Part shown: positions 4,146-63,209 of the stretch, one piece after another | Numbering within the stretch: position 1 is the first letter of the stretch | Layout: every line of letters starts with the position of its first letter | Assembly (NCBI RefSeq): GCF_900188275.1 | Contig: NZ_FZNY01000001.1 | Location: forward strand, 1,302,001-1,366,000 | DNA: 64,000 nucleotides | Source of the DNA: Dokdonia pacifica | GTDB lineage: Bacteria; Bacteroidota; Bacteroidia; Flavobacteriales; Flavobacteriaceae | Direction: 5' to 3' | The notes under the pieces: model-generated | What the model was told of the DNA's origin: nothing | The model's database searches: none | The model's input: only the letters and a program-made list of their open reading frames with translations | Translations under genes and position numbers: made by a program

Positions 4146-4874
4146 TTATAAACTAGGAATAAATCCTTCAAAAATAATAGTATCGTAAAGTGCTTTATAA
4201 AGCTCAATTTGTGACTGACTACGAGCTGTCCACAATAGTATAGGGACTCCCTTCTCTTTAAAGTAAGACACTCTTTTATTAGGTAAATCGTCTATGTCGT
4301 ATGCGACAAAATCAGGAGACATACGCTTGTTCAATTGAAAATAATTATAGATATGATTTATTGGAAAAATTAACGTAGAAGGCTCTGCAAGTTGTCCTAC
4401 ATTGTAGGTGTGAGTTTGCTTACTTAGCCATTTTACAGAAGATCTATTAAAGGACTGTAAAGCGACATCGCCTTTATACTCTTTAAGTAATGACAATGTA
4501 TTTTTTTCTAGTTTTTTTGAGAGACTATGTGTTTTAAATTCTATTAATAAAGGTACTTGCCCTTTTACAAAGTGCAATACTTCTTGAAGTGTAGGAATTG
4601 TTTGAGATGTATTAAAAAGAGAGTGGTTTTTTAATGTTGTTTTAGTGAGTGATTTTGTTTTTTTTGAACTATTACAAACTCGTTTTAAATCGGTATCGTG
4701 AAAAACAATAACGGTTCCGTCCTTTATAATCTGTATGTCAAGTTCTATCGGGTAATTTTCTTTTATTGCTTTCGCGAAAGCGGATAAAGAATTTTCCGGA
4801 ATTTTAAGATTGCCATCATGTAAACCACGATGAGCAATAGGTCTAGTGGTAAGCCATGTAGCAATCTTTTTCAC
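4146..4874 (-). CDS. Glycerophosphodiester phosphodiesterase
   Basis: A 242-residue GDPD-family protein. It would hydrolyse glycerophosphodiesters to sn-glycerol-3-phosphate and an alcohol using a divalent metal. The catalytic signature is complete: HRG at residues 15-17, PENS near 26-29, the ELD metal-binding acids near residues 45-47, and FHD with the second catalytic His near 60. No signal peptide is evident, so the protein is probably cytoplasmic (UgpQ-like). The palindrome GCTTTCGCGAAAGC lies inside the gene and encodes AFAKA within the segment ENSLSAFAKAI, where many GDPDs have a similar ENTLAAF helix, so it does not appear to break the fold. Family certain; exact substrate unknown. Confidence 0.9.
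   Translation of the reverse strand: MKKIATWLTTRPIAHRGLHDGNLKIPENSLSAFAKAIKENYPIELDIQIIKDGTVIVFHDTDLKRVCNSSKKTKSLTKTTLKNHSLFNTSQTIPTLQEVLHFVKGQVPLLIEFKTHSLSKKLEKNTLSLLKEYKGDVALQSFNRSSVKWLSKQTHTYNVGQLAEPSTLIFPINHIYNYFQLNKRMSPDFVAYDIDDLPNKRVSYFKEKGVPILLWTARSQSQIELYKALYDTIIFEGFIPSL
4768..4781. repeat. Palindrome GCTTTCGCGAAAGC, copy 1 (in GDPD gene)
   Basis: Exact 14-bp palindrome, read as AFAKA in the host gene. Confidence 0.95.
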
Positions 4875-4890
4875 TTCAAGGGTGTGTTAA

Positions 4891-5553
4891 TTATGCTTCT
4901 TCTGCAAGTTCTTTTTCTGTAAAAGCTCTAAAAGCAAATTTGTATCCTTCATATCCGGCAATAGCATAGAAGAATAAATCCATACCACTGAAAGTTTCTT
5001 TCATCATAGGGATGATTTCGGAAAGATTGATTAAACTAAAAGTCTCAAAATAACCAAGATTTTCATAATTAGCTATAGAGCCTACAAGGCTAAAGTAGTT
5101 TCCTAAAAGACAACTAACAATAGCAATAATAGCACCTGAGATTCCAAAAATTTGATCCATCCCTTTACCGAAAATACGCATAGAAATTCCTACACCAGCA
5201 CCTATGGCAATGGCCATATAACCAATCTGATACCCTGTGGCCACTGTGATTGCAGCCCATAATAAGGCGCCAATAAAGCCTACCAAAACCCCTGTGCCTA
5301 TAGCTGCAGGAAGATTTTGCTCTGATCTGTATTTTTCTAATGCTTTCTCTGAGACTCTAGCCATTGCAACTTGTCTATCAAGTGCTTCTGTGTCATCCAT
5401 TTGTTCTAATACAGTTTCGTCGTAATTATAATCTCGACATTCTCCTTCAAAATCAGCTTTCCTTTTAGTAAGGCTGCATAAGAGACCCTGTTCCATATCT
5501 AATTCTCGGTTAGTACATTTTTTACAAAATTGAAGATGTTCTTCTCTTGTCAT
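4891..5553 (-). CDS. Conserved flavobacterial membrane protein with Cys motif
   Basis: A 220-residue protein I cannot place in a named family. The first 45 residues are soluble and hold a spaced Cys pattern (FCKKCTNRELD, LLCSLTK, ECRDYNYDE) resembling a small metal-binding or redox module. A short acidic linker follows, then from about residue 82 three or four hydrophobic helices, one Gly-rich (IAIGAGVGISMRIFGKGMD). The C-terminus is soluble (EGYKFAFRAFTEKELAEEA). It ends 16 bases before the GDPD gene, and the two could be cotranscribed. A cytoplasmic Cys module with a membrane anchor is what can be seen; no function is proposed. Confidence 0.6.
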   Translation of the reverse strand: MTREEHLQFCKKCTNRELDMEQGLLCSLTKRKADFEGECRDYNYDETVLEQMDDTEALDRQVAMARVSEKALEKYRSEQNLPAAIGTGVLVGFIGALLWAAITVATGYQIGYMAIAIGAGVGISMRIFGKGMDQIFGISGAIIAIVSCLLGNYFSLVGSIANYENLGYFETFSLINLSEIIPMMKETFSGMDLFFYAIAGYEGYKFAFRAFTEKELAEEA

Positions 5554-5633
5554 AATTTGAATGGTTAATTGTTTTTAATTATTAGAATAGGAGGGTTTTG
5601 TGAGATCAATATACATTAATTTTATAGAGCAAT

Positions 5634-5663
5634 AAAAAGCCCCTTCTATAGAAGAGGCTTTTT
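5634..5663 (-). terminator. Rho-independent terminator (both directions possible)
   Basis: AAAAAGCC pairs with GGCTTTTT around an inner TTCTATAGAA hairpin. It sits just past the stop of the HhH protein gene (minus strand) and should end the HhH-OmpA operon. Confidence 0.8.
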
Positions 5664-5687
5664 GTGTTAAATTAGAGAAAGAGTTGT

Positions 5688-6290
5688 CTATTCTTTCCCG
5701 TAATCATGTTCATCTTGCCATTTTTTAAGTTCACCCCATTTTCCTTCGGCAGCTAGTTTTGCTTGCATAGGCCATGATTGAGGACGATGTATTTCAAAAC
5801 GTTTTCCACCACTTTGAAGAACTTCTTGGCATTTTTCTACAGTAGTGTCTCCTAAAGAGGCCCATGTCTTGATATCAAAATTGTGAAATAGTTCTCTTAT
5901 TTTTGGACCAATTCCTTCTACCACGGTAAGATCATCTTCTTTAATAGTTTTTCCAAAAGCTGCTTTTGCAGCTGCAGGATCATAAGGAACAATGGTAATA
6001 GTAGGTTCAGGAATTGTTTCCGTTTGAGCCGCAAATGATGAAGACATACTCGCAGTACTACTAGCGGCAACAGGTGCTGCAGTTGCTGTTTTAAGTTGTG
6101 AACGGCATGCTTCTAAATCTGCCTTTAAAGAAGCATTTTTACGTTTCCATAAATCGAGGTCATCACTAGAATCATTGCCTTTTCCAGCAAGACGTCCTAA
6201 TAAGTATCCTAAAATTGCGCATATAAGGCCAACAAGAAGCGGTATGAGCCAGCACGGTATGTTTGATAAGTCTATTATTAATAAATTCAT
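5688..6290 (-). CDS. Membrane-anchored protein with helix-hairpin-helix domain
   Basis: A 200-residue protein. One N-terminal membrane helix (about residues 10-32, IPCWLIPLLVGLICAILGYL) is followed by a coiled-coil segment, a low-complexity Ala/Ser/Thr linker, and a C-terminal domain of about 80 residues beginning LTVVEGIGPKI. The EGIGPK motif is typical of helix-hairpin-helix domains in the family often annotated as predicted 5' DNA nuclease or flap-endonuclease-like. No catalytic acids typical of a nuclease stand out, so a binding role is as likely. The gene lies 16 bases downstream of the double OmpA-like gene on the same strand, and this pairing of HhH and OmpA-like proteins recurs in Bacteroidota. 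Role unknown. Confidence 0.65.
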   Translation of the reverse strand: MNLLIIDLSNIPCWLIPLLVGLICAILGYLLGRLAGKGNDSSDDLDLWKRKNASLKADLEACRSQLKTATAAPVAASSTASMSSSFAAQTETIPEPTITIVPYDPAAAKAAFGKTIKEDDLTVVEGIGPKIRELFHNFDIKTWASLGDTTVEKCQEVLQSGGKRFEIHRPQSWPMQAKLAAEGKWGELKKWQDEHDYGKE

Positions 6291-10612: not shown

Positions 10613-11200
10613 TTATGGTTCCAGTTGGATAATATCCCACCCTTCTTCAGATTGTGTATATAATACTCTGTTGTGGAACCTAGAGGCATTAAATTCTAAA
10701 AATTCGATACGGTAAGGTTTGATTTTCCAACCACTCCAATGAGCTGGTTTATTGATGGGTTGCTGTCTTTTTACGCTTTCGCGAAAGCGTACCCTTAATA
10801 ATTCTAAATCTTTTGCAGGGGCTCCTTGTGTACTTATGGTACTCACAATTTGGGATTCGTAACTCCTATCATTAAAAAAGAAAAGGGCATCTTCTTCGGA
10901 AATTACAGAAGCTGTTCCTTGAATGCGTACCTGACGTTTGGTTTCTTCCCACCAAAATGTAAGTGCTACTTTGGGATGTGCATCGATTTCTTTTCCTTTT
11001 CTGGATAAGGTAGATCCAGTGATGATGAGATATGGTTTTTCTATAGATTTGAGAGATACATTTCGAGCATTAGGAAAACCATCTAGTCCTTGAGTAGATA
11101 GGACACACGCAGATGGGTAGTTGTTTTTGGTAATGGATACGTATTCCTGTAGCCAGTGTGCAAATGTATCTATGGGTTCTGGATACTCTTGTTTGTTCAT
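10613..11200 (-). CDS. pdxH: Pyridoxamine/pyridoxine 5'-phosphate oxidase
   Basis: A 195-residue FMN-dependent enzyme that makes pyridoxal 5'-phosphate. Family marks include PSACVLSTQGLDGFPNARNV at the N-terminal FMN-binding strand region, the substrate loop FFFNDRSYESQI, and the C-terminal PAHWSGWKIKPYRIEF with ASRFHNRVLY. It starts 3 bases after the dioxygenase stop, indicating cotranscription. The palindrome at 10775 encodes RFRES in a surface-type charged segment (LLRVRFRESVKRQ). It is slightly shorter at the N-terminus than the E. coli enzyme, as in many Bacteroidota. Confidence 0.92.
   Translation of the reverse strand: MNKQEYPEPIDTFAHWLQEYVSITKNNYPSACVLSTQGLDGFPNARNVSLKSIEKPYLIITGSTLSRKGKEIDAHPKVALTFWWEETKRQVRIQGTASVISEEDALFFFNDRSYESQIVSTISTQGAPAKDLELLRVRFRESVKRQQPINKPAHWSGWKIKPYRIEFLEFNASRFHNRVLYTQSEEGWDIIQLEP
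10775..10788. repeat. Palindrome GCTTTCGCGAAAGC, copy 2 (in pdxH)
   Basis: Exact copy; symmetry extends to TACGCTTTCGCGAAAGCGTA. Read as RFRES in pdxH. Confidence 0.95.
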
Positions 11201-15518: not shown

Positions 15519-15532
15519 GCTTTCGCGAAAGC
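15519..15532. repeat. Palindrome GCTTTCGCGAAAGC, copy 3 (intergenic)
   Basis: Exact copy with symmetry extended to 22 bp (15515-15536). It lies between the GG-leader peptide 1 gene and the STAND ATPase gene, which are divergently transcribed. Confidence 0.95.
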
Positions 15533-15700: not shown

Positions 15701-18160
15701 ATGACGATAGAATCCATTTTAATATATGTAGGGAAGAGTATTGCTAGACTGGCTTTCAAAACAGCTTTAAAAAATAAAATCACCCCTCTTTTTGGGGATA
15801 AAGAATCGTATGAAGCAAGCTTGTATCATGTGATTTTAAAAACCATAGAAGATTTTGAAAAAGAACATCCTAGCTCTAAAGTGACAGGTAAATTTCCTTT
15901 TTATAAAAGTCACTTGCTTTTTGATGCTTTAAGTCGCTATGTTTTATTTAATGAAGGCTCAAAGGAAACGTTAGATATTGCCTTTAAAGAAAACACAAAC
16001 ATTATACCTCCAACCAAAGAAGAACTTGAAGCATTCTATCAGTTGTTTTTGGACAATGTAGTTCAAGATCAAAAACTAAAGGATCTGTTTATCAGTGAAA
16101 ATTATCAAAAACAAATATTTTCCAATACTGAAAAACTGAAGAGTTTAATTAATTTAACTACTTCTGTAAAAGACGATACTCAAGAAATTATTAAACGATT
16201 AGACGGAGGGGTCTCTTCTCAAATTCCCAAAGAACTCACAACCCTACTACCTAAGTTAGAAAAAAGGAAAATTGTAGGAAGAAGATCAGAACTGGAAAAA
16301 CTTAAAAAAAGCTTATTTGACAATAAACAAGTCGTTTTGGTTAATGGTATGGGAGGGATAGGAAAGACAACCCTAGCGACCGTATACTTAACAGAGTTTT
16401 TTAATGAATATAATCATATTGCTTGGATAAGCGCCACTCAAAATGGATTCTATAATGATGTGGTTGCGGCAGCTGGACTTTTGGAATCTTTACGAATAGA
16501 ATTAGGAGGTACTCCAGAAGAAACATACAATGCCGTAAAAGCAAAGCTGAACAGCCTCAAAGGCAAAAATTTATTAATTATAGATAATGCTACAGAAGAT
16601 CTGGCTATTTATGCTTCTTATTTGCCTAGTCAACCTAAGTGGCATTTACTAGTGACTTCACGAGAGAAAATTGATTTTTTTGATACGATGGAGATTGGTT
16701 TTTTAAGTGAACCCGAAGCCGTACAACTTTTTAAAGAACACTACAAGTACCAGAAACTTCAAAATAAGGATATTAAAGAATTGGTAGCGGGTATTGAATA
16801 CCATACCCTCACTATAGAAATATTGGCCAAAACTGCCCAAGAATTGCGAATGTCTCCAACAGCATTGAATGCCGCCATTGTAAACAATATGGAGACAGAT
16901 ATTATCACAAGGCATCGCAATAAAAAAATAGGTAAAATCTTGTCTTATTTAACAGCTGTTTTTGATATGAGTGAGTTAACTAAAGATGGTATTACCGTAT
17001 TAAAATATATAAGTGTATTACCTTCTGAATACCTGCAAAATGAAGATTTGGAAGAGGTACTCTCTTTTTTACCAGATATCTTGCCTAGAGGGCGTGCAGA
17101 ATTACTAAAAAAAGGATGGGTGTTATATAACCCATCGGAAGATGCTTATAAACTACATCAAATTATTCAGGAGGTTGTAAAATCTAAGTTTACGCATGAT
17201 GCTGAGTTTTTGGAACCACTTATAATCTCATTGCAATCAGTTTTAAGCTTTAATATTGAAAATAAAGACAATCCCATCTCAAAATTTAAATGGATTCCAT
17301 ATGGGAAAACGTTTTTAAAGCAATTCGAAGAGAATACAGCCATAAATGTATCTACAATTCAAAATAATTTAGGGTTAATACTTAGGGATTTAGGAGATTA
17401 TGTGGGTGCTAAGGGTGTATTGGAAAAGTCAGTAGAGTCTCATGAGAAGTATTTTGGGGAAGATCATCCTAATACTATTAGTAGTTATTCTAATTTTGCG
17501 CTCTTTCTTCAAGATATAGGAGACTATAGAGGCGCAAAGAATTTAATAGAAAGAGTAGTGTCTTCTGATGAGAAAAATTTTGGAGAAGATCATCCTAATA
17601 CTGCAATTAGTTATTCGATTTTGGGATTAGTACTTAAAGATTTAAAGGACTATAGGGGCGCAAAGAATTTATTAGAAAAAGCATTAGTATCAGATGAGAA
17701 GAACTTTGGAGACCACCATCTTAATACTGCGACTAGTTATTTAAATTTAGCAACCACACTTCGAGGTATAGGGGATTATGAGGGCGCAAAGGATTTAATG
17801 GAAAAGGCGATGTCTTCTTATGAAAGAAATTTAGGAATGGATCATCCATACACTACTACTAGCTATTCAAATTTAGCATTGGTGCTTCAAGATTTAGGAA
17901 ATTATGAAGGCGCCAAGGATTTATTGGAAAAGGCAATAGCATCCGATATAAAGAACTTTGGGGAACATCACCCTGCTACTGCAAATCGATATTCTAATTT
18001 GGCTACTGTACATAAAGATTTAGGAAATTATGAAGGTGCAAAGGTTTTATTGGAAAAAGCTTATCAAATCTTTTTAAATAAACTAGGAGGTGAGCACCCT
18101 AACACCAAAATTGTGAAAGGTAATTTAAGTGTAATAATAAAAGAAATGGAAAATCAATAA
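15701..18160 (+). CDS. STAND ATPase (NB-ARC) with C-terminal TPR array
   Basis: An 819-residue NLR-like protein. Residues 1-170 are a helical N-terminal domain I cannot name (no TIR, CHAT, protease or nuclease motif seen). Residues 190-410 are the NB-ARC core, with Walker A GMGGIGKTT at 216-224, Walker B LLIID at 291-295 and the sensor segment LLVTSRE around 316-322. A winged-helix-like stretch (about 410-500) follows. From about 545 to the end there are six 42-residue kinesin-light-chain-type TPRs (for example LGDYVGAKGVLEKSV). In bacteria such proteins sense phage or other ligands through the repeats and activate an N-terminal effector. A defence role is plausible but not shown. The gene lies between two GG-leader peptide genes on the opposite strand. 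Confidence 0.85.
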   Translation: MTIESILIYVGKSIARLAFKTALKNKITPLFGDKESYEASLYHVILKTIEDFEKEHPSSKVTGKFPFYKSHLLFDALSRYVLFNEGSKETLDIAFKENTNIIPPTKEELEAFYQLFLDNVVQDQKLKDLFISENYQKQIFSNTEKLKSLINLTTSVKDDTQEIIKRLDGGVSSQIPKELTTLLPKLEKRKIVGRRSELEKLKKSLFDNKQVVLVNGMGGIGKTTLATVYLTEFFNEYNHIAWISATQNGFYNDVVAAAGLLESLRIELGGTPEETYNAVKAKLNSLKGKNLLIIDNATEDLAIYASYLPSQPKWHLLVTSREKIDFFDTMEIGFLSEPEAVQLFKEHYKYQKLQNKDIKELVAGIEYHTLTIEILAKTAQELRMSPTALNAAIVNNMETDIITRHRNKKIGKILSYLTAVFDMSELTKDGITVLKYISVLPSEYLQNEDLEEVLSFLPDILPRGRAELLKKGWVLYNPSEDAYKLHQIIQEVVKSKFTHDAEFLEPLIISLQSVLSFNIENKDNPISKFKWIPYGKTFLKQFEENTAINVSTIQNNLGLILRDLGDYVGAKGVLEKSVESHEKYFGEDHPNTISSYSNFALFLQDIGDYRGAKNLIERVVSSDEKNFGEDHPNTAISYSILGLVLKDLKDYRGAKNLLEKALVSDEKNFGDHHLNTATSYLNLATTLRGIGDYEGAKDLMEKAMSSYERNLGMDHPYTTTSYSNLALVLQDLGNYEGAKDLLEKAIASDIKNFGEHHPATANRYSNLATVHKDLGNYEGAKVLLEKAYQIFLNKLGGEHPNTKIVKGNLSVIIKEMENQ
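17380..18100 (+). repeat. In-gene 126-bp tandem repeats (TPR units)
   Basis: Six related units of 126 bp encode the TPRs of the STAND ATPase. Recurring words include GATTTAGGAAATTATGAAGG and CATCCTAATACT. DNA-level similarity between units is high enough for unit gain or loss by recombination, a usual way to diversify sensor repeats. Confidence 0.7.
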
Positions 18161-20975: not shown

Positions 20976-21605
20976 ATGTTTTCTTTTTTGAATCGCATTT
21001 TTAAGAAAAAAGAGAGAAAACTCCCTGCTGAAGATCCTATGAAAAAATTTCTCATTGTAGGTTTGGGTAATATAGGTCCCAAATACACAAATACAAGACA
21101 TAACATTGGTTTTAAAGTTTTGGACGCTTTCGCGAAAGCTAAAGAAGCCACTTTTGAAACAGAAAAATTAGGCGACATCGTCAAAACCAAAATAAAAGGA
21201 AAAACAGTAGTTCTTCTCAAGCCTAGTACCTATATGAATTTAAGTGGAAAAGCAGTGCGATACTGGTTACAACAAGAAAAAATCCCATTAGAAAATCTAC
21301 TTGTCATCACAGATGATTTAAATCTAGAATTTGGAACCATCAGAGTAAAAACCAAAGGAAGTGACGGTGGACATAATGGTCTAAAAGATATTCAGGCACA
21401 ACTTAACACAACAAAATACAATAGATTTCGGTTTGGTATAAGTGACCAATTCTCAAAAGGACGTCAGGTAGATTATGTTCTTGGAGAATGGACCCCAGAT
21501 GAAGATGCGGCACTTCCTGAACGATTAGAAAAAAGTTGTGAGGTAATTACCTCTTTTATAGGAGCAGGAATAGGGAATACGATGAATGCATATAACGGCA
21601 AATAA
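20976..21605 (+). CDS. pth: Peptidyl-tRNA hydrolase
   Basis: A 209-residue enzyme that releases tRNA from stalled peptidyl-tRNA. It has the catalytic His block NTRHNIGF, PSTYMNLSG, ITDDLNLEFG and SDGGHNGLKDI. The first 21 residues (MFSFLNRIFKKKERK...) are a basic extension beyond the usual start MKKFLIVGLGNIG. Flavobacterial Pth proteins often carry such an extension, so I keep the upstream ATG, but residue 22 is a possible alternative. The palindrome at 21126 encodes AFAKA in the helix just after NIGFKVL. It ends two bases before ribF. Confidence 0.93.
   Translation: MFSFLNRIFKKKERKLPAEDPMKKFLIVGLGNIGPKYTNTRHNIGFKVLDAFAKAKEATFETEKLGDIVKTKIKGKTVVLLKPSTYMNLSGKAVRYWLQQEKIPLENLLVITDDLNLEFGTIRVKTKGSDGGHNGLKDIQAQLNTTKYNRFRFGISDQFSKGRQVDYVLGEWTPDEDAALPERLEKSCEVITSFIGAGIGNTMNAYNGK
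21126..21139. repeat. Palindrome GCTTTCGCGAAAGC, copy 4 (in pth)
   Basis: Exact copy, read as AFAKA (LDAFAKAKEA). Confidence 0.95.
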
Positions 21606-25420: not shown

Positions 25421-27214
25421 ATGAAGAAGAGATGTATATTTGTAATCGTACTTGTTTTTGGGGTATTCGCTTTCGCGAAAGCGCAAACCGAGCAACTTGC
25501 ACGTAATTACTTTGATCAGGGGCAGTTTGAAAAAGCACGTATTTCTTACCAAAAGGCACTAAAGAAACAGCCTACAAATAACACCGTACTTCTAGGTCTC
25601 ATTAAAACGCATCAACAATTAGAAGACTATGCTGCGGTTAAAACACTCATAGAAAAACAAGTTGATAATTCACGTTATAAAGGACTCTTGCATGTAGAAT
25701 TAGGCTATAATTATCAATTACAAGGACAAGACTCTATCGCAAAAGTTGAGTATGAAACTGCAATAGAATTAGTAAGAAATCGCATGACGAGTGCCTATCG
25801 TGTAGGCAAAACACTTCAAGACCATAGTCTTTTAGAAGAAGCAGTTAGAGCATATCAAGCAGGTATGGATGCCAACCCTAACAGTAATTTTAATAGACAG
25901 CTAGCTCGTATTTATGGAGAGTTAGGGCAACTGGATAAGATGTTTGATAGCTATCTAAATTTAGCTAATGAAAACCAAGCATATGTTGCATCTGCACAGC
26001 GTAATTTTGCGATGTTTATTACAGAAGATCCTACCAATGAAGCAAATATTGTTTTTAGAAAAACCTTACTTAAACGTCTTCAAACCGAACAAAATATCAT
26101 TTATAATGAATTGTTGAGTTGGCTATTTATCCAACAGAAGCAATATAAAAAAGCATTTGTACAAGAAAAGGCAATATTTAAACGTACCGATGGTGATATT
26201 ACAGGTGTAGTTGATCTTGCGGGTATTACGATAGAGGCAAATGCATTAGATGATGCACAAGATATTCTTGAATATATTAAAGAAGTTGCTATAGATGATG
26301 AGACAAAATTAGATGCAGAGCAACAACTTCTAAAAATTGAAATTAAAAAAGCAACTACCAATTCAAAAAGAGAAGAGATACGTAGTCGTTACGAAGTGCT
26401 TCTTGATCAATATGGAATCAATAGTTATACGGTACCTCTTCAAATAGATTATGCACATTTCTTAGCTTTTGAAATGAAAACACCTGGTGAAGGAGCTACC
26501 TTTTTAAAACAAAGTGTCAAAAAAGAAATCAATCGTTTTGATGAAGCAAGATTAAAAATGGAGCTTGCTGATATCTTAGTGTTACAAGAAAAATTTAACC
26601 AAGCTCTTATTTATTATTCTCAAATTCAGAATAAAATTAAGAATAGTGTCATTTCTCAAGAGGCACGTTTTAAAGTAGCAAAAACAAGTTATTATAAAGC
26701 AGATTTTAAGTGGGCAGAAACACAGCTAGATGTTTTAAAATCTAGTGCTACACAACTTATTGCCAATGACGCTTTAGAGCTTTTATTGGTTATCCGTGAC
26801 AATTCTTTGGATGATACATTACAAACAGCATTAAAGAAGTATGCCAGAGCCGATTTGTTAGGCTATCAAAATAAACCAGAATTGGCCATAAAGAAATATA
26901 ATGAGATTTTAGAACAGCATAAAGGAGAGAGTATTGAAGATGAAGCACTGCTCGCTCAGGCAACGTTGTATGAGCAGAAGTCCGCTTTCGCGAAAGCGGA
27001 AAAAAATTACATCACCATTATAGATTTTTATAAAGATGGCATCTTAGCAGATGATGCATATTACAGATTGGCACAACTTTATGAAGGACCATTGCAACAG
27101 CCTGAAAAAGCCAAAAATAACTATGAGCGTATTATCTTTGATTTTGCAGATAGCATTTATTATGTAGAAGCGCAAAAACGATTTAGAGCGCTGCGTGGAG
27201 ACGCAATTAATTAA
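25421..27214 (+). CDS. Exported TPR-repeat protein
   Basis: A 597-residue protein. A signal peptide of about 22 residues ends FAFAKAQ, so cleavage would fall right at the AFAKA encoded by palindrome copy 5. The mature chain consists of TPR-like helical repeats throughout (QGQFEKARISYQKAL near residue 35, LLEEAVRAYQAG near 145, NKPELAIKKYNEIL near 490, PEKAKNNYERIIFDFA near 565). A second palindrome encodes AFAKA at residue 523 within a TPR helix. No enzymatic domain is present. It probably acts in the periplasm as a scaffold. The conserved placement before DUF4286 and rsmA says little of function. Confidence 0.78.
   Translation: MKKRCIFVIVLVFGVFAFAKAQTEQLARNYFDQGQFEKARISYQKALKKQPTNNTVLLGLIKTHQQLEDYAAVKTLIEKQVDNSRYKGLLHVELGYNYQLQGQDSIAKVEYETAIELVRNRMTSAYRVGKTLQDHSLLEEAVRAYQAGMDANPNSNFNRQLARIYGELGQLDKMFDSYLNLANENQAYVASAQRNFAMFITEDPTNEANIVFRKTLLKRLQTEQNIIYNELLSWLFIQQKQYKKAFVQEKAIFKRTDGDITGVVDLAGITIEANALDDAQDILEYIKEVAIDDETKLDAEQQLLKIEIKKATTNSKREEIRSRYEVLLDQYGINSYTVPLQIDYAHFLAFEMKTPGEGATFLKQSVKKEINRFDEARLKMELADILVLQEKFNQALIYYSQIQNKIKNSVISQEARFKVAKTSYYKADFKWAETQLDVLKSSATQLIANDALELLLVIRDNSLDDTLQTALKKYARADLLGYQNKPELAIKKYNEILEQHKGESIEDEALLAQATLYEQKSAFAKAEKNYITIIDFYKDGILADDAYYRLAQLYEGPLQQPEKAKNNYERIIFDFADSIYYVEAQKRFRALRGDAIN
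25469..25482. repeat. Palindrome GCTTTCGCGAAAGC, copy 5 (in TPR gene signal peptide)
   Basis: Exact copy, read as AFAKA at the predicted signal-peptide cleavage site (AFAKA/QTEQ). Confidence 0.95.
26984..26997. repeat. Palindrome GCTTTCGCGAAAGC, copy 6 (same TPR gene)
   Basis: Exact copy; symmetry extends to TCCGC...GCGGA. Read as AFAKA (KSAFAKAEKN), second copy in one gene. Confidence 0.95.
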
Positions 27215-27986: not shown

Positions 27987-28836
27987 ATCAAAACGCACTT
28001 TTGAAAAGTCACACAAAAAATCTACAAACCGAGATAGAGGGATTGTTGCAAAAAAACATCTAGGACAACATTTTTTAGGAGATGAAGAAGTAGCAGAACG
28101 TATAGGAAATACACTTACACTAGATGGATATTCAAATGTATTAGAGATAGGTCCGGGAACGGGAGTACTCACCAAATATATTCTTAGTAAACCTGTGCAA
28201 TTGATTGTTATGGATCTGGATACAGAATCTATAGGGTATCTAAATAGTTCTTTTAAATTGGAACAAAAAGTAAGTAGTCCAGATAAATTTCAAGTGCTGG
28301 AGGCTGATTTTTTAAAGTATCCATTAGAGACGTTATTTCCAGAGAAGCCTTTTGCAATCACAGGTAATTTTCCATACAATATATCTACTCAGATTGTATT
28401 TAAAATGCTAGAGCATAAAGAACGTATTCCTGAATTTACAGGCATGTTCCAAAAAGAAGTAGCACAGCGTATTTGTGCTCCTCATGGGAATAAGACCTAT
28501 GGGATTTTATCGGTGCTTGCGCAAGCATTTTATGAGGCAGAGTATCTTTTTACGGTACCTCCCACGGTTTTTATTCCTCCGCCAAAAGTAGATAGCGGTG
28601 TTCTTCGACTACGTCGTAAAGAAAATTATAAAGACATAGGTTGTGATGAGAAACAATTGTTTAAAGTGGTGAAAATGGCATTTCAACAGCGACGTAAAAC
28701 GTTACGAAATAGCTTAAAAGGAATGTCGCTAAGTGACCGCTTTCGCGAAAGCGAAATTCTAAATAAACGCCCCGAGCAATTGTCTGTTCAAGATTTTATA
28801 ACATTGACTAGTGATATTACATCGGATTTAGAATAG
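27970..28836 (+). CDS. rsmA: 16S rRNA dimethyladenosine transferase
   Basis: A 288-residue SAM-dependent enzyme that dimethylates two adjacent adenosines near the 3' end of 16S rRNA. The [14 protein letters not shown] opening, motif [15 protein letters not shown] and motif IV NFPYNIS are present. The first 25 residues are basic ([17 protein letters not shown]) and longer than usual; a start nearer KKHLGQHF is possible. The palindrome at 28739 encodes RFRES in the C-terminal domain ([10 protein letters not shown]) just before the [10 protein letters not shown] block. Confidence 0.93.
28739..28752. repeat. Palindrome GCTTTCGCGAAAGC, copy 7 (in rsmA)
   Basis: Exact copy, read as RFRES. Confidence 0.95.
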
Positions 28837-32180: not shown

Positions 32181-32567
32181 ATGAAACCTATTAATATAAA
32201 AGAAAAATATACCAAATTTGATACCCAATGGCATCCCCATCAAATTGCTTTGGTGGATGATATGCAAGTGATTTTGGCTAAAATTTCAGGAGAGTTTGTA
32301 TGGCACAGTCATAAAAACGAAGATGAGTTATTTTATGTACAAAGGGGTACATTATATATGCGCTTTCGCGAAAGCGGAAACCTAGAGAACGAATGGTCTG
32401 AAACTGTGCATGAGGGAGAAATCATAGTGGTGCCTAAAGGTGTTGAGCATTGCCCGACTACAAAGGACGGCGAAGAAGTACATTTATTGCTTTTTGAAAA
32501 ACAAAACACGGCTCATACTGGAGATGTTCAGCATGAAAAAACACAAACGGAATACCCTAAAATATAA
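32181..32567 (+). CDS. Cupin domain protein
   Basis: A 128-residue single cupin. The metal-site motifs are readable: GEFVWHSHKNEDELFYVQRG (motif 1, with two His and a Glu) and the second motif around VPKGVEHCPTT. Related proteins are often linked to sugar-isomerase or dioxygenase-like activity, but nothing decides between these. The palindrome at 32362 encodes RFRES between the two motifs (YMRFRESGNLE), a loop that varies in length in cupins. Confidence 0.85.
   Translation: MKPINIKEKYTKFDTQWHPHQIALVDDMQVILAKISGEFVWHSHKNEDELFYVQRGTLYMRFRESGNLENEWSETVHEGEIIVVPKGVEHCPTTKDGEEVHLLLFEKQNTAHTGDVQHEKTQTEYPKI
32362..32375. repeat. Palindrome GCTTTCGCGAAAGC, copy 8 (in cupin gene)
   Basis: Exact copy, read as RFRES. 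Confidence 0.95.
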
Positions 32568-38293: not shown

Positions 38294-39232
38294 ATGCGCA
38301 TTCTTCATCTCGACCAAAATCATCCACTATTACTAGAGCAATTAGCACTTGCGGGACATCATAATGACGAAAATTATACCATTTCAAAAGAAGCAACAGA
38401 AAAGATCATTTCGAAATATGACGGTATTGTCATACGAAGCAGATTTAAAATTGACAAACAATTTATAGATGCTGCATCACAATTAAAATTTATTGCACGC
38501 GTAGGAGCTGGTTTAGAAAGTATCGATATTCCATATGCAGAAGGTAAAGGTATTTACCTGATAAGTGCTCCAGAAGGAAACCGCAATGCAGTAGGAGAAC
38601 ACGCATTAGGAATGATCCTTTCACTCTTTAATAAATTAAATCGTGCAGATGCTGAGGTGAAAGCAGGACATTGGAATCGAGAATCCAATCGCGGCTTAGA
38701 ACTAGAAGGAAAAACGATTGGAATTATTGGATATGGAAATATGGGAAAAGCTTTTGCAAAAAAACTAAAAGGCTTTGACTGCGAAGTGCTATGTTATGAT
38801 ATCTTAGATCAAGTAGGAGATGACAACGCACGTCAAGTATCCCTTCAAGAACTTCAAGAGAAGACAGATGTATTGAGTTTACACACCCCTTGGACGCCTC
38901 AAACAGACAAGATGGTTGATGATAATTTTATAAACGCTTTCGCGAAAGCGTTCTATCTCATAAACACGGCGAGAGGGAAAAGTGTGGTCACATCTGCACT
39001 GGTCACTGCTTTAAAAAGTGGAAAAATAAAAGGAGCAGGACTCGATGTATTAGAATATGAAAAACTATCTTTTGAAAACCTCTTTACTTCAAAAGAAGAA
39101 ATGCCAGATCCATTAAAATACCTTATTACAGCACAAAATGTATTACTAACTCCTCACATTGCTGGATGGACTATAGAAAGCAAGCGTAAATTGGCACAAA
39201 CCATTGTAGACAAAATTCTCGCTAGCTTTTAG
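38294..39232 (+). CDS. D-isomer 2-hydroxyacid dehydrogenase
   Basis: A 312-residue NAD-dependent dehydrogenase of the SerA-like family. The Rossmann motif is IIGYGNMGKAFAKKL; NAVGEHALGMIL, the catalytic Arg in NTARGKSVV and the His in TPHIAGWT are all present. There is no ACT regulatory domain, so it could be 3-phosphoglycerate dehydrogenase or another 2-hydroxyacid enzyme. The palindrome at 38936 encodes AFAKA (NAFAKAFYLINTARG) directly before the catalytic Arg segment, a position where homologues usually have a short helix. Confidence 0.85.
   Translation: MRILHLDQNHPLLLEQLALAGHHNDENYTISKEATEKIISKYDGIVIRSRFKIDKQFIDAASQLKFIARVGAGLESIDIPYAEGKGIYLISAPEGNRNAVGEHALGMILSLFNKLNRADAEVKAGHWNRESNRGLELEGKTIGIIGYGNMGKAFAKKLKGFDCEVLCYDILDQVGDDNARQVSLQELQEKTDVLSLHTPWTPQTDKMVDDNFINAFAKAFYLINTARGKSVVTSALVTALKSGKIKGAGLDVLEYEKLSFENLFTSKEEMPDPLKYLITAQNVLLTPHIAGWTIESKRKLAQTIVDKILASF
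38936..38949. repeat. Palindrome GCTTTCGCGAAAGC, copy 9 (in 2-hydroxyacid dehydrogenase)
   Basis: Exact copy; symmetry extends to AACGC...GCGTT. Read as AFAKA. Confidence 0.95.
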
Positions 39233-41856: not shown

Positions 41857-41860
41857 TTGT

Positions 41861-43306
41861 ATGAGTACACCTACACTACATAAAGCATACGATAGTCGTT
41901 TATTTAGTGAACAAGGGAATGACTTAATCCTGCAGATAAGGAATCATCTTGAGCAAAATATAACAGGACAAAAAGAAACCATCACTAAATGGGTAGATCC
42001 TCAGGATGAATATACTTTTTGGAAGACATATACGCAAGAGAATCATACAACACAGTCTTTCTTTGAAACCGTTTTAAAACGCTCTATACACATACATCAT
42101 CCACATTATATTGGACATCAAATAGCGCCTACAGTGCCTGTATCTGCATTGGCAAATTTGTTGAGTGCACAACTTAATAATGGAATGGCAGTGTATGAGA
42201 TGGGGCAAGCGAGTTCTGCAATAGAAAGAGTGGTCATAGAGTTTTTTACAGAAACCATTGGGTGGCATGAAGGAGATGGATTTTTAACCTCTGGAGGAAC
42301 ATTAGCAAATCTTACGGCATTACTAGCTGCAAGAAAAATAAAAGCAAACTCAGATATTTGGAATGATGGATATGATGGCAAACTCGCTATTATGGTATCT
42401 GAAGAAGCACATTATTGTGTAGATCGTTCTGCCAGAATAATGGGACTAGGAGAAGCAGGAATTATCAAAGTACCCGTAGGAGAAGATTACAAAATACGTG
42501 TAGACCTCTTACAACACTATTATGATCAAGCTGTACAAGATGGCTTTGAAGTTATTGCCGTGATAGGAAGTGCGCCATCTACAAGTACAGGAATATACGA
42601 TGATTTAGATGGGGTTTCCGCTTTCGCGAAAGCGAATAATATCTGGTTTCATGTAGATGGAGCTCATGGAGGCGCTGCGATTTTTTCTAAAAAATACAAA
42701 CACCTACTGCAAGGCATAAACAAAGCAGATTCTGTTATTATAGATGGTCATAAAATGATGGGTACTTCTGCTATCACAACAGCAGTTCTTTTTAAAAATT
42801 CAGTAGATAGTTATGCCACCTTTAGTCAAAAAGCCCAATACCTATGGGAACAAAATGACGACCCAGAATGGTACAACCTTGCAAAACGAACCTTTGAGTG
42901 TACAAAAAGTATGATGAGTTTGCGATTTTATGCAATTCTTAATGCCTATGGCGCTCAGTTTTTTGATGATTTTGTAACCACACTTTACGATAGTGCATAT
43001 GTGTTTTCTGAATATATTAAGGAAAGCCCTGATTTTGAACTTGCCTTAGAAGCTCAAAGCAATATTGTGTGTTTTAGATATACGGGAGGTATTCCAAAAG
43101 AAAAAATTCAGGAAATAAATAAAACCATTAGAAAGACCCTTTTAGAAGAAGGGACATTTTATATCGTTTCTACTACTTTAAAAGGAGAATTGTGGTTGCG
43201 TACCACATTTATGAATCCATTTACAACAGAAGAACATACTCAAAAACTAACAGATAAAATAAGAACAATAGCAAAAAGCATACATCATAAAATGCAAGAC
43301 GCATAA
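41861..43306 (+). CDS. PLP-dependent group II amino-acid decarboxylase
   Basis: A 481-residue fold-type I decarboxylase related to diaminobutyrate, glutamate, tyrosine and aromatic amino acid decarboxylases. I start at 41861 (MSTPTLHKAYDSRLF), 4 bases after the arsR stop; an upstream ATG at 41828 overlaps arsR. The PLP Lys is in IIDGHKMMGTSA; HVDGAHGGAA holds the Asp that pairs with the pyridine nitrogen; EEAHYCVDRSARIMG holds the ring-stacking His. The substrate cannot be read. Its place directly after arsR is unusual. The palindrome at 42620 encodes AFAKA (VSAFAKANNIWFHVD) just before the PLP Asp. Confidence 0.87.
   Translation: MSTPTLHKAYDSRLFSEQGNDLILQIRNHLEQNITGQKETITKWVDPQDEYTFWKTYTQENHTTQSFFETVLKRSIHIHHPHYIGHQIAPTVPVSALANLLSAQLNNGMAVYEMGQASSAIERVVIEFFTETIGWHEGDGFLTSGGTLANLTALLAARKIKANSDIWNDGYDGKLAIMVSEEAHYCVDRSARIMGLGEAGIIKVPVGEDYKIRVDLLQHYYDQAVQDGFEVIAVIGSAPSTSTGIYDDLDGVSAFAKANNIWFHVDGAHGGAAIFSKKYKHLLQGINKADSVIIDGHKMMGTSAITTAVLFKNSVDSYATFSQKAQYLWEQNDDPEWYNLAKRTFECTKSMMSLRFYAILNAYGAQFFDDFVTTLYDSAYVFSEYIKESPDFELALEAQSNIVCFRYTGGIPKEKIQEINKTIRKTLLEEGTFYIVSTTLKGELWLRTTFMNPFTTEEHTQKLTDKIRTIAKSIHHKMQDA
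42620..42633. repeat. Palindrome GCTTTCGCGAAAGC, copy 10 (in decarboxylase gene)
   Basis: Exact copy, read as AFAKA. Confidence 0.95.
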
Positions 43307-45636: not shown

Positions 45637-46056
45637 ATGAAAAAAAACATACTCGTACTTTGTACAGGAAACAGCTGTCGTAGTCAGATGGCACATGGAT
45701 ATTTAAACCTATTAGCAGGTGATAAGGCAACGATCTATTCGGCAGGAATAGAAACCCACGGGATCAATCCGGGAGCAGCGGCTACTATGGCAAAAGATGG
45801 TATAGATATTACTGGGCATACCTCAAATCATGTAGATGAATATGAAGGGGTGGATTGGGATTTTATTATTACCGTATGTGATCATGCTTATGAGAACTGT
45901 CCATTCATTGCAGCGCCTAATGCCACACGATTACATCACAACTTTTACGATCCCTCAAAGTTTGTAGGATCTACTGAAGATACAGAGGCCGCTTTCGCGA
46001 AAGCGAGAAATGAAATAAAAGCATATTGTCAAGATTTTATATCAAATCATTTGTAA
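45637..46056 (+). CDS. arsC: Arsenate reductase, thioredoxin-coupled type
   Basis: A 139-residue low-molecular-weight phosphatase-type ArsC. The P-loop is LCTGNSCRSQM with catalytic C9, and the redox pair C81 and C88 (TVCDHAYENCPF) corresponds to C10/C82/C89 of the staphylococcal enzyme, so it should cycle with thioredoxin and reduce arsenate to arsenite. The palindrome at 45991 encodes AFAKA (EAAFAKARNEI) in the C-terminal helix. No arsenite efflux pump gene accompanies it here. Confidence 0.92.
   Translation: MKKNILVLCTGNSCRSQMAHGYLNLLAGDKATIYSAGIETHGINPGAAATMAKDGIDITGHTSNHVDEYEGVDWDFIITVCDHAYENCPFIAAPNATRLHHNFYDPSKFVGSTEDTEAAFAKARNEIKAYCQDFISNHL
45991..46004. repeat. Palindrome GCTTTCGCGAAAGC, copy 11 (in arsC)
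   Basis: Exact copy, read as AFAKA in the C-terminal helix of ArsC. Confidence 0.95.
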
Positions 46057-48707: not shown

Positions 48708-48721
48708 GCTTTCGCGAAAGC
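48708..48721. repeat. Palindrome GCTTTCGCGAAAGC, copy 12 (intergenic)
   Basis: Exact copy, 21 bases after the MBOAT stop, preceded by TGTTTTT. It might double as a weak terminator. Confidence 0.95.
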
Positions 48722-51360: not shown

Positions 51361-51407
51361 GCTCTTTCTGTGGTTGTGAATCTTGCAGGCTCGATTTCGC
51401 GAAAGCG
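51361..51407. repeat. Composite repeat, copy A
   Basis: Ends in TCGATTTCGCGAAAGCG, one mismatch from the palindrome. About 30 bases before it (GTTGTGAATCTTGCAGGCTCG) match copy B at 53849-53896. Confidence 0.7.
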
Positions 51408-53819: not shown

Positions 53820-53848
53820 TTTTAAGCCTGTGTACGCTTTAACGCTTC

Positions 53849-53896
53849 GCTCTCCTTAATAGTCGTGAACCTCACAGGTTCGCTTTCGCGAAAGCG
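53849..53896. repeat. Composite repeat, copy B
   Basis: GTCGTGAACCTCACAGGTTCG followed by the exact palindrome. GAACCT/AGGTTC forms a perfect hairpin with a 3-nt loop. It lies between convergent M28 and acyltransferase genes. Confidence 0.75.
53882..53895. repeat. Palindrome GCTTTCGCGAAAGC, copy 13 (intergenic)
   Basis: Exact copy within composite repeat B. Confidence 0.95.
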
Positions 53897-53943: not shown

Positions 53944-55758
53944 CTATTCTTCTTCTAGATTTCTATGGCCATATTTTTTTTCAAGTTCTGCTTGAAACTC
54001 TTCCATTACAGGCTTTACAGTACTTTCAGGAAGGTCTGCAATACGTATGTACATAAGACCATCTACTGCGTTATTAAATAGTGGGTCTACATTAAAGGCA
54101 ACTACTTTTGCGTTTTGTTTTATATATTTTTTGATAAGTACAGGAAGCCTAAGAGAGCCCGGTTCTACTTCATCTATGAGCTTGTCAAACTTGTTAAGAT
54201 CGGCAGCGCTTTCGTCAAAAACAAATTCTTTATCGGCGTCTTTAAGTCGTACTTTGAATTCTTTTTTAGGGCGAATGTATTGGGCTACATAAGGGTCCCA
54301 ATAATGAGATTTCATAAACTCAATCATCAAGGATTTTGAAAAATTTGAGAATTGATTAGAAATACTAACTCCTCCGATGAGGTATTTATGTTTTGGAAAA
54401 CGTAAGGTAGTATGAACAATACCTTTCCATAATAGGAATAAGGGCATTGGTTTTTGTTGATATTCACTAATAATAAAAGCACGTCCCATTTCGATACTTT
54501 GGCTCATCATTGTATGTAATTCGGTATCAAAACGAAAAAGGTCTTGAAGATAAAATCCATCAATACCATATTTTTCATAGATTTCTGAACCTAATCCCAT
54601 ACGGTAGGCTCCTGCTATTTTTTTTGCATCACTATCCCATAAAAACATATGATGGTAGTAACGATCAAATTTGTCCAGATCTGTAGCTTCATTAGTTCCT
54701 TCTCCAATGGCTCTAAATGTGATTTCGCGTAAGCGTCCTATTTCCCGAAGTGTATTGAGCATTTCATCTGCAGGTGCAAGAAAAACTTCATAGTTTTTGG
54801 ATTGTAACAGGCGACGGTCATTAGATCGTAGTTTATCAATCTCTTCATAAATTAAATCACTACTTATTGAAACGGCAATTTCTTTGGGTTCTTTAGGAAC
54901 TTTAAGAGTTTGTGGTATGGTGCTAAGACGACTTTTTGTTTCAAAAGATTTCGCTAGCATATATGTTTTCTTACGAAGAAACTCTGTAAAACTAGGTAAG
55001 TCTGTATATTCTTTTTGAGCAGTAACTTTTATAGGGTTTCCAATACGAACTTTAATCACTCTATTTTTTTGAGTAAGTAATTCGCTAGGAAGTTTAGCGG
55101 TTCGTAAGGTGCTACTTATACGTGATAGTTGATAGAATAACCTACTGTTTTTTGCATGAAAATAGATAGGTACAATAGGGACCTCTGCTTTTTTGATAAG
55201 CTTTATAGCTGCTTCTTCCCATGGTTTATCAATAATGAGTTTGTCATCTTTATAGGTAGAGACTTCTCCTGCCGGGAAAATTCCTAGTGGGCATCCATTT
55301 TGGAGATGTAATAGTGCATTTTTAAAACCAGCAATACTAGATTTTACATCTTTACGATCTTCAAAAGGATTTACGGGCATTACGTAAGGTTTTAAAGGAT
55401 CTATACGGTGTAAAAGAAAATTTGCTATAATTTTAAAATCATCACGCTGTTCAAGCATGAGTTTAAGTAAAAGAATACCATCAATCCCTCCTAATGGGTG
55501 ATTTGAGATAGTTATATAAGCACCATTTTTAGGAAGACGTTTAAGATCTTCTTCAGGGATATCAAATTTGATTTGAAATTCATCTAGAAGGGCATTTAAG
55601 AAATCGAGATCACTCAGATGTTTATTGCGATCATAAATTTTATTTAGGCTAGAAATTTTAAGTGTTTTCATGAGTGACCAACCAAGAAAAGTACCTATAA
55701 AGCCGAATTTATCAACGTTTATGGCTTGGGCAACTTCTTTTGCGGTAACTAAACTCAT
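53944..55758 (-). CDS. Fused lysophospholipid acyltransferase and GNAT-type N-acyltransferase (OlsF/GlsF-like)
   Basis: A 604-residue fusion. Residues 70-280 are an LPLAT-type O-acyltransferase with YITISNHPLGGIDG as the His/Asp motif and LGIFPAGEVSTY. Residues 325-530 are an acyl-ACP-dependent N-acyltransferase of the OlsB class (EVFLAPADEMLNTLREIG, REITFRAIGEGTNE, GFYLQDLFRF). Bacteroidota enzymes of this layout (OlsF, GlsF) make ornithine or glycine aminolipids from the amino acid and two acyl chains. Which amino acid is used cannot be told. The phosphate-free lipids it would make are common in marine flavobacteria. Confidence 0.85.
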   Translation of the reverse strand: MSLVTAKEVAQAINVDKFGFIGTFLGWSLMKTLKISSLNKIYDRNKHLSDLDFLNALLDEFQIKFDIPEEDLKRLPKNGAYITISNHPLGGIDGILLLKLMLEQRDDFKIIANFLLHRIDPLKPYVMPVNPFEDRKDVKSSIAGFKNALLHLQNGCPLGIFPAGEVSTYKDDKLIIDKPWEEAAIKLIKKAEVPIVPIYFHAKNSRLFYQLSRISSTLRTAKLPSELLTQKNRVIKVRIGNPIKVTAQKEYTDLPSFTEFLRKKTYMLAKSFETKSRLSTIPQTLKVPKEPKEIAVSISSDLIYEEIDKLRSNDRRLLQSKNYEVFLAPADEMLNTLREIGRLREITFRAIGEGTNEATDLDKFDRYYHHMFLWDSDAKKIAGAYRMGLGSEIYEKYGIDGFYLQDLFRFDTELHTMMSQSIEMGRAFIISEYQQKPMPLFLLWKGIVHTTLRFPKHKYLIGGVSISNQFSNFSKSLMIEFMKSHYWDPYVAQYIRPKKEFKVRLKDADKEFVFDESAADLNKFDKLIDEVEPGSLRLPVLIKKYIKQNAKVVAFNVDPLFNNAVDGLMYIRIADLPESTVKPVMEEFQAELEKKYGHRNLEEE

Positions 55759-61963: not shown

Positions 61964-61993
61964 AAAAAAGGCGACAAATTTGTCGCCTTTTTT
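61964..61993. terminator. Bidirectional terminator
   Basis: AAAAAAGGCGACAAA is followed by its exact inverse TTTGTCGCCTTTTTT. It ends both the kinase operon and the convergent TerB gene. Confidence 0.92.
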
Positions 61994-62012
61994 ATGAAAT
62001 ATGATAGTGTTA

Positions 62013-62444: not shown

Positions 62445-62468
62445 AGTTTTATCTTTATAATTAAGTCG

Positions 62469-62510
62469 CAAATATAGCTATTATTGCATCATTTTTAATT
62501 TGTACATTTG
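62469..62510. promoter_or_regulatory. Divergent promoters of terB-like and hupE-like genes
   Basis: Minus strand TATATTTG (62476 to 62469) faces TerB; plus strand TACATTTG (62503-62510) faces the HupE gene, about 24 bases before its ATG. Both match TAnnTTTG. Confidence 0.5.
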
Positions 62511-62533
62511 GAAAACCCCCTAATATATTTTTG

Positions 62534-63127
62534 ATGGATACTTTTTGGTTTTATTTTAAAGAAGGACTTTTCCATGTACTTGATTGGAATGCCTATGACC
62601 ACATTCTTTTTATTATAGTTTTAACCGTTCCATACACTTTTTCTAACTGGAAAAGATTATTATCGTTAGTAACTATTTTTACCGTAGGACATACCATATC
62701 GCTTAGTCTTTCTGCATATGAAGTTGTCAAAATTAATACAACCCTTATAGAGTTTCTAATTCCTGTGACGATTCTAATTACAGCCCTATATAACATTTTT
62801 ACAGCAGGGAAAAAGGGAAGAAAAGAACAAGTGGGGGTTTACTTTATTAGTACATTGTTTTTTGGGCTTATTCACGGTTTTGGGTTTTCTACGTATTTTA
62901 AAATGATGACCGCTAGTACAGAGAATAAATTTATACCCCTATTAGAATATACATTGGGTATAGAAGCATCTCAAATTATTATAGTACTTTTAGTGCTCAT
63001 TATGAGCTTTGTAGGCCAGTTTTTGTTCCGTTTTTCATTAAGAGATTGGGTCATGGTCATTTCTGCTATTGTGATTGGGGTTGCAATTCCTATTTTTAGA
63101 AATGCATTATTTGCGTTAAATATTTAA
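62534..63127 (+). CDS. HupE/UreJ-like membrane protein
   Basis: A 197-residue protein with six hydrophobic helices. I prefer the ATG at 62534 (MDTFWFYFKEGLFHVLD) over a TTG at 62531. The family marks are LDWNAYDHILFI and FTVGHTISLSLSA in the N-terminal half and FFGLIHGFGFS in the C-terminal half, with His residues that could bind nickel or another metal. HupE/UreJ proteins are metal permeases, but this short Bacteroidota form has no hydrogenase or urease genes beside it, so the metal is unknown. Confidence 0.85.
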   Translation: MDTFWFYFKEGLFHVLDWNAYDHILFIIVLTVPYTFSNWKRLLSLVTIFTVGHTISLSLSAYEVVKINTTLIEFLIPVTILITALYNIFTAGKKGRKEQVGVYFISTLFFGLIHGFGFSTYFKMMTASTENKFIPLLEYTLGIEASQIIIVLLVLIMSFVGQFLFRFSLRDWVMVISAIVIGVAIPIFRNALFALNI

Positions 63128-63195
63128 TAATCGGTTGCGTATCCCGTAAGAGGCACTTACTTTAGTAGTTATAAATTGGGTTTGGTTATTTATAC

Positions 63196-63209
63196 GCTTT
63201 CGCGAAAGC
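63196..63209. repeat. Palindrome GCTTTCGCGAAAGC, copy 14 (intergenic)
   Basis: Exact copy with symmetry extended to 24 bp (63191-63214). It lies 22 bases before the dCMP deaminase start. Confidence 0.95.

What the first reader, a model, noticed from the sequence alone, without database searches (positions are those of the whole stretch)
4768..63209. A 14-bp perfect palindrome, GCTTTCGCGAAAGC, repeated 14 times
Exact copies at 4768, 10775, 15519, 21126, 25469, 26984, 28739, 32362, 38936, 42620, 45991, 48708, 53882 and 63196. A random 14-mer is expected about 0.0002 times in 64 kb on base count alone, and this one is GC-rich in an AT-rich genome. Several copies have symmetry extended to 20-24 bp. 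Degenerate forms occur near 39823, 43876, 45606, 51393 and 54722. It resembles cyanobacterial HIP1 in being short, dispersed and mostly inside genes. Possible roles are a DNA-binding or methylation site (it contains TCGCGA), an uptake signal or a self-propagating repeat.
Basis: partly seen in the sequence, partly recalled or inferred. Interest (0 to 1): 0.78.

Follow-up and report, generated by a model that had tools for sequence, protein, structure and literature searches.

The report
Regularly spaced palindrome across Dokdonia genomes
Marine Dokdonia bacteria, and some phages, keep many copies of one palindromic DNA sequence, spaced every few thousand bases and preserved almost letter for letter; it looks like a landing site for an unknown protein that the cell's DNA needs.

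Summary
GCTTTCGCGAAAGC occurs 14 times in the window and 903 times in its 5.5-Mb genome, reversed control 0. All 18 genomes searched in the genus, Dokdonia, hold 369-905 copies; two other genera sampled have hundreds, the other family genomes 0-17.

The element is larger than the 14-mer: a dyad core plus 18-bp G-poor arms, about 50 bp. Spacing is more even than random in 5 of 6 stretches. In genes, 26 of 27 alignable copies are intact in a relative at 85% identity, against 17% of ordinary 14-mers; third codon positions inside it are identical at 120 of 121, against 69% elsewhere. Gene copies arise by substitution, not insertion. Tailed phages carry and conserve it.

Methylation, REP/RAYT, ParB and hairpin readings fare poorly. 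It resembles Neisseria uptake sequences statistically, but no pilus-type ATPase was found in 9 of 15 carriers and phages keep it. Best reading: a cis-acting protein site, perhaps a bidirectional Chi-like self mark; reader unidentified. No held paper contains the 14-mer.

The parts
4768..4781 (.). exact 14-mer, in ORF 4146-4874(-), frame AFAKA
10775..10788 (.). exact 14-mer, 20-bp symmetry, in ORF 10613-11200(-)
15519..15532 (.). exact 14-mer, 22-bp symmetry, intergenic
21126..21139 (.). exact 14-mer, in ORF 20976-21605(+)
25469..25482 (.). exact 14-mer near the start of TPR-protein ORF 25421-27214(+)
26984..26997 (.). exact 14-mer in the same TPR ORF; the G017 orthologue differs by substitutions, without a gap
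28739..28752 (.). exact 14-mer, in ORF 27970-28836(+); the G017 orthologue has one mismatch
32362..32375 (.). exact 14-mer, in ORF 32181-32567(+); the one coding copy of 27 that is not exact in G015 (one mismatch)
38936..38949 (.). exact 14-mer, 20-bp symmetry, in ORF 38294-39232(+)
42620..42633 (.). exact 14-mer in the PLP-decarboxylase ORF 41828-43306(+)
45991..46004 (.). exact 14-mer near the end of ORF 45637-46056(+)
48708..48721 (.). exact 14-mer, intergenic, starting 21 bp after the last base of the MBOAT ORF
51393..51406 (.). one-mismatch copy (GATTTCGCGAAAGC), intergenic after the S9 peptidase ORF
53882..53895 (.). exact 14-mer, intergenic, at the end of a small repeated element
53833..53881 (+). 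repeated element that looks inserted into the palindrome with CGCTTT duplicated; the G015 orthologue has the bare palindrome (direction of change inferred)
54721..54734 (.). two-mismatch copy
63196..63209 (.). exact 14-mer, 24-bp symmetry, intergenic

Best explanation
SHOWN: the unit is a two-fold symmetric DNA element of about 50 bp: a strict core TTTCGCGAAA, usually within CGCTTTCGCGAAAGCG, flanked on both sides by 18-bp arms whose outgoing strand is poor in G and rich in A/C. It is held by strong constraint at DNA level. In genes it appears by base substitution and not by insertion. It recurs on average every 3-7 kb in the stretches read, and it is present and conserved in tailed phages. 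INFERRED: it is the binding site of one host protein that reads it as a dimer. The element works in cis as a permission or self mark: double-stranded DNA that lacks a site over several kb is at a disadvantage. The mechanism I find most likely is a Chi-like site readable from both directions, met by a DNA-processing machine. The G/T-rich, C-poor strand running into the core would then favour loading of a RecA-type filament; the arms are 18 nt with a period of 3, about one turn of such a filament (filament figures and RecA's preference are recalled). The reader protein is unknown.
For: Genome count 903, reversed control 0; 369-905 in 18 of 18 genomes of the genus. Codon-matched flank bias falls off after position 18 on 201 coding copies with 4000 control positions; similar G-poverty in 82 strictly noncoding copies, with period 3, P=0.0009 by column permutation, a test chosen after seeing the pattern. 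Both sets pool copies from up to eight stretch sets, so orthologous copies count more than once. No mirror covariation of the arms, and 1 of 58 two-mismatch sites is palindromic, so half-site reading rather than a hairpin. 26 of 27 alignable coding copies intact at 85% identity against 17% of 14-mers; third codon positions 120/121 against 0.692. Spacing CV 0.45-0.57 in four stretches and 0.74 in G001, against 0.94-0.99 random; var/mean 0.30 over 20 samples of 20 kb round the G001 chromosome. Phages: 38 copies in the 224 kb seen of 14 viral contigs; 3 of 4 independent phage sites exact between phage types at 64-72% identity, where 0-5% of 14-mers are.
Against: No reader protein was found. Ends of alignment blocks are not closer to sites than random, rather farther (1158 against 854 bp and 1345 against 651 bp), which is no sign of recombination hotspots. 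Known Chi sites are short and one-directional (recalled). Spacing in G207 is not significantly regular (n=19, 0.115 of random sets as even). The phage contigs were chosen for carrying the motif, several are near copies of one another, their hosts are not shown, and one of the conserved phage sites has one mismatch in a third phage type. Inside the arms positions 8, 14 and 15 show little bias in coding copies, and in noncoding copies G stays somewhat low to about position 22, so the edge is not equally sharp in both.
Confidence: 0.35

Rival explanations
1. A DNA uptake sequence: competent cells bind DNA carrying it, and copies build up by biased uptake and recombination, as DUS do in Neisseria.
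For: Same signature as read for DUS in PMC2397512 (abstract and passages): high conservation, permissive places, a link of spacing to recombination. Here identity is lowest 8-25 bp from the core against G017 (0.689 against 0.760-0.777 farther out), and some sites differ from G017 by many substitutions at once, so replacement by recombination is possible. ComEC is present in 31 of 31 genomes.
Against: A T2SSE/PilB-type ATPase (PF00437) reaches the cut-off in only 6 of 15 motif-rich genomes, and not in G001 with 899 copies; ComEC is equally present in motif-poor genera; phages conserve the site; known uptake sequences are not palindromes (recalled).
Confidence: 0.2
2. A nucleoid-structuring protein (of Noc/MatP/SlmA type in function, not in family) bound every few kb around the chromosome.
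For: Dyad site with long footprint; even spacing and 3-9 copies in each of 20 samples round the G001 chromosome, with no trend that I could see; no clear preference among intergenic types, 19 co-directional, 10 divergent, 3 convergent against 24.8, 12.8 and 5.8 kb of such DNA.
Against: ParB is single in 13 of 15 motif-rich genomes and the own genome holds 3 canonical parS sites, so ParB is an unlikely reader; it is unclear why phages would conserve such a site; counts do not follow genome size (899 in 3.3 Mb, 903 in 5.5 Mb).
Confidence: 0.28
3. A single-strand hairpin signal, e.g. for replication restart or priming.
For: The 16-mer folds to a 6-bp stem with loop CGCG, -4.3 kcal/mol as DNA.
Against: Shuffles fold as well in 52 of 200; no excess of compensated variants, 1 of 58; arms do not covary.
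Confidence: 0.07
4. HIP1-like: created and kept by a DNA methyltransferase and linked repair.
For: Short, palindromic, dispersed, mostly in genes. Inner TTTCGCGAAA occurs 16 times outside the exact 14-mer in the own stretch, where about 0.5 in all is expected.
Against: PF01555 and PF00145 both without a hit over cut-off in 8 of 15 motif-rich genomes, the own one included; TCGCGA outside the 14-mer is not in excess in the own stretch (30 against 42.8 expected), though somewhat in G207 (41 against 27.8); a footprint of about 50 bp is far longer than a methylase site (recalled). Other MTase families not tested.
Confidence: 0.03
5. A mobile repeat (REP/RAYT or MITE) that spreads by insertion.
For: 8 intergenic places in the own 464 kb bear a longer repeated element ending in the palindrome or a degenerate form of it.
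Against: 9 of 10 coding differences to G017 show no gap inside the 14-mer; no Y1 transposase in 6 of 9 motif-rich genomes; at 53882 the bare palindrome is present in G015 without the element.
Confidence: 0.02

Closest known systems
Neisseria DUS / Haemophilus USS
   Same: Hundreds to thousands of copies, strong conservation, permissive sites, core plus weaker flanks (flanks: Haemophilus)
   Different: Palindromic, two symmetric arms; most carriers tested show no pilus-type ATPase; conserved in phages
HIP1 (GCGATCGC) of cyanobacteria
   Same: Iterated palindrome, mostly in genes, lineage-bound
   Different: 14-16 bp core with 18-bp arms; no common methyltransferase of the two families tested; inner hexamer not clearly enriched by itself
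Chi sites (recalled)
   Same: Roughly one per few kb; proposed self mark for a DNA-processing machine
   Different: Palindromic and long; no RecC in any of 60 genomes tested; no breakpoint enrichment seen
parS / Noc-binding sites (recalled)
   Same: 14-16 bp palindromes read by dimers
   Different: Hundreds of copies spread over the chromosome; canonical parS exists separately in the own genome
REP / RAYT elements (recalled)
   Same: Repeated palindrome
   Different: Arises by substitution, mostly in genes, transposase absent in 6 of 9 carriers tested

Membership tests
DNA uptake sequences (DUS/USS) | Over-represented and far more conserved than surrounding DNA | tested here: met
DNA uptake sequences (DUS/USS) | Carriers have a pilus-type uptake machine | tested here: not met
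   PF00437 over cut-off in 6 of 15 motif-rich genomes; one family only
DNA uptake sequences (DUS/USS) | Raises DNA uptake by competent cells | not testable with these tools
   experiment needed
HIP1 | Methyltransferase for an inner part of the motif present in carriers | tested here: inconclusive
   PF01555 and PF00145 both missing in 8 of 15 carriers; PF02086, PF02384 and others not tested
HIP1 | Highly iterated short palindrome, mainly in genes | tested here: met
   61 of 93 copies coding in 464 kb
REP / RAYT | Y1 transposase of the RAYT kind in the genome | tested here: not met
   absent in 6 of 9 motif-rich genomes
REP / RAYT | Spreads by insertion as a unit | tested here: not met
   for copies in genes
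ParB-parS / Noc | Reader is a ParB-family protein | tested here: inconclusive
   single ParB in 13 of 15 motif-rich genomes; 3 canonical parS in the own genome; binding not tested
Chi | RecBCD-type nuclease reads it | tested here: not met
   RecC 0 of 60
Chi | AddAB-type nuclease reads it | not tested
   biochemistry needed

The most novel reading that the evidence does not exclude
A bacterial 'self' code written in sequence and not in methylation: a 50-bp dyad element with triplet-periodic arms must occur every few kb on any DNA that is to persist in the cell, and phages of these hosts have taken it up to pass as self.
Probability: 0.25. Interest if true: 0.95.

Novelty: new variant of a known kind. 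Interest (0 to 1): 0.8.

Why it matters
Only a few kinds of genome-wide, position-conserved short sequences are known in bacteria (uptake sequences, Chi, HIP1, KOPS, parS-type sites; list recalled). None that I know of is a long palindrome with 18-bp arms, kept in genes and in phages alike. If it is a self mark, it is a new way to tell own from foreign DNA; if it is structural, it gives Bacteroidota a chromosome-organising code.

Tried and rejected
Methylation: two MTase families and the count of TCGCGA outside the motif. REP/RAYT: and alignments. ParB. RecC. Pilus-type ATPase and ComEC. Hairpin. Recombination breakpoints: block ends not near sites. Single origin: a parA-parB-dapB tree of 25 rows needs 3 changes of the trait, 2 of them forced by well-supported branches; g11 is on a long branch, so gain versus loss is open. 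Remnants in the closest motif-free relatives: only one own site could be aligned to each of L163 and L164, and no palindrome is there. Search for other iterated palindromes (10-14 bp, 3 or more copies) in 80 named loci: beyond the three Dokdonia loci only L177 and L227 gave any, 3 copies each. Naming of genera g11 and g191 failed for lack of close named loci. An earlier count gave '75 of 80' named loci without the 14-mer; one search shows 77 of 80. One search gave no alignments, probably because of its gap-cost options, and was repeated with others. Papers: PMC4390886 abstract, outline and passages; PMC2397512 passages including its abstract; PMC7811141 passages; others only as search listings. 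Searches that found no paper on this motif: 14-mer, 0 papers; 10-mer, 10 papers, none on it by title.
Full report
The 14-mer is at all 14 places, and the control of 100 shuffles gives a mean of 0.14 matches at up to two mismatches against 16 seen. In the whole genome (5,520,745 bases, 31 contigs) it occurs 903 times and the reversed pattern 0 times. The window is C21:1302001-1366000 of that genome.

In the genus 18 of 18 genomes hold 369-905 copies with control 0; the two lowest counts are in genomes of 78 and 85% completeness. The number does not follow genome size. Of 249 genomes of the family, 53 have a match, but hundreds occur only in the own genus (2 rows), g11 (G027 578, G258 664) and g191 (G207 408); all others have 0-17. 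Of 296 genomes drawn from the phylum 16 have a match; outside the family there is at most one copy, and the reversed control has single matches in about a dozen genomes too, so these are chance. Of 80 named loci around a conserved peptidase, 3 hold the 14-mer, all Dokdonia and all from genomes already counted.

Anatomy. In 464 kb of the own genome there are 93 exact copies, 8 with one and 16 with two mismatches, while ten permuted palindromes of the same letters give 0 exact, 0.2 and 0.4 on average. 61 copies are in called genes and 32 between genes, though genes cover 91%, so intergenic DNA is enriched. In genes 42 of 61 read AFAKA. Aligning the flanks against same-gene, same-frame controls (201 copies, 4000 control positions) shows a bias that runs to position 18 and then drops to near zero, with weak places at 8, 14 and 15: G is avoided and A and C preferred on the strand leaving the core. 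In 82 copies with stops in all six frames the same is seen, G staying somewhat low to about 22, and the A/C preference has period 3 (the test was chosen after the pattern was seen). These sets pool several genomes, so orthologous copies count more than once. The arms do not pair with each other, and variants are not compensated: 1 of 58 two-mismatch sites is a palindrome, and the 30 one-mismatch changes fall on positions 1, 2, 5 and 6 of the half-site. This is what dimeric reading of duplex DNA gives. Near-miss sites have arms of intermediate quality.

Spacing. The spread of distances is well below random in own, G015, G017, G258 and the first 100 copies of G001 (fraction of random sets as even: 0, 0, 0.0002, 0 and 0.001) but not significantly in G207 (0.115, n=19). 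Mean spacing in these is 3.8-7.3 kb. Twenty 20-kb samples round the G001 chromosome hold 3-9 copies each, variance/mean 0.30.

Evolution. Against G015 (85% identity) 33 of 93 own copies could be aligned, mainly because only 200 kb of G015 was fetched. 30 of 33 are exact: 26 of 27 in genes, 4 of 6 between genes. Ordinary 14-mers are conserved at 17%. Third codon positions inside the 14-mer are identical at 120 of 121, against 0.692 elsewhere. Against G017 (75%) 9 of 20 alignable copies are exact against 4.8% of 14-mers; of the 11 that differ, 10 are in genes, and 9 of these 10 show no gap inside the 14-mer. Some differ by many letters at once, so stepwise mutation and replacement by recombination cannot be told apart. 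In the reverse direction 9 of 10 are exact, so the own lineage has more sites. DNA 8-25 bp from the site is less conserved than average against G017, hardly so against G015.

Phages. An extended pattern finds 17 stretches in 14 contigs. These hold 38 copies in the 223,909 bp seen, at least two in each. The density is biased upward because only stretches with matches are held, and several contigs are near-identical. Portal, major head, terminase, tape-measure or transposase (phrog_310) genes were found in stretches carrying the motif; 4 of the 20 proteins scanned had no PHROG match (the two transposase stretches, L084 and L115, belong to contigs outside the 14). Phages with a related capsid or primase (about 45% identity) of Cellulophaga and Flavobacterium hosts have no exact copy in the parts read (L312, L313). 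Between phage types at 64-72% identity, where 0-5% of ordinary 14-mers survive, 3 of 4 independent sites are exact; one of the three has a single mismatch in a further type. The hosts of these phages are inferred, not shown. The site is thus probably useful to, or required of, DNA that lives in such a host.

What reads it is open. ParB is single in 13 of 15 carriers, and the own genome has canonical parS. RecC is absent in 60 of 60. Two methyltransferase families are both missing in 8 of 15 carriers. Y1 transposases are missing in 6 of 9. A pilus-type ATPase is over cut-off in 6 of 15 carriers and 11 of 45 non-carriers. ComEC is in 31 of 31.

My reading: a dyad protein-binding site needed in cis, most likely a self or permission mark in the manner of Chi but readable from both sides. 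The link of the 18-nt, period-3 arms to a RecA-type filament is a recalled analogy and an inference. A nucleoid protein is nearly as likely; an uptake sequence is less likely because of phages and the missing pilus ATPase, but it fits the published statistics of DUS (PMC2397512, passages) and is not excluded. The absence of the 14-mer from print rests and, for related themes.

Noticed in passing
window 53833-53881; further copies in own stretch, G015, G013, G002, G207: A repeated element of about 45 bp looks inserted into the palindrome with CGCTTT duplicated, leaving an intact palindrome; G015 has the bare palindrome at the same place.
   Followed up: partly
L275-L280 (G118, G231, G095, G104): A copper-resistance-like island (RND pump, outer-membrane efflux protein, multicopper oxidase; read in L275) shared by genera without the genome-wide motif carries the palindrome, with two copies 933 bp apart in L275, L277, L278 and L280, as if imported from a motif-rich host.
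   Followed up: partly
L016 12342-14356 (G000 C21 near 1.154-1.156 Mb): Three parS-like sites TGTTCCACGTGAAACA; the replication origin is probably near, about 150 kb before the window.
   Followed up: no
window 22561-23904: Protein with HTTM and vitamin K-dependent gamma-carboxylase lumenal domains.
   Followed up: no
window 15701-18160: NB-ARC ATPase with TPR repeats, a domain make-up seen in bacterial defence-like proteins (the last part recalled).
   Followed up: no
L163, L164 (Flavobacteriaceae MAGs): Their S9 peptidase is closer to the window's (85-86% aa) than that of Dokdonia sinensis (81%), yet the loci hold no copy of the palindrome.
   Followed up: partly
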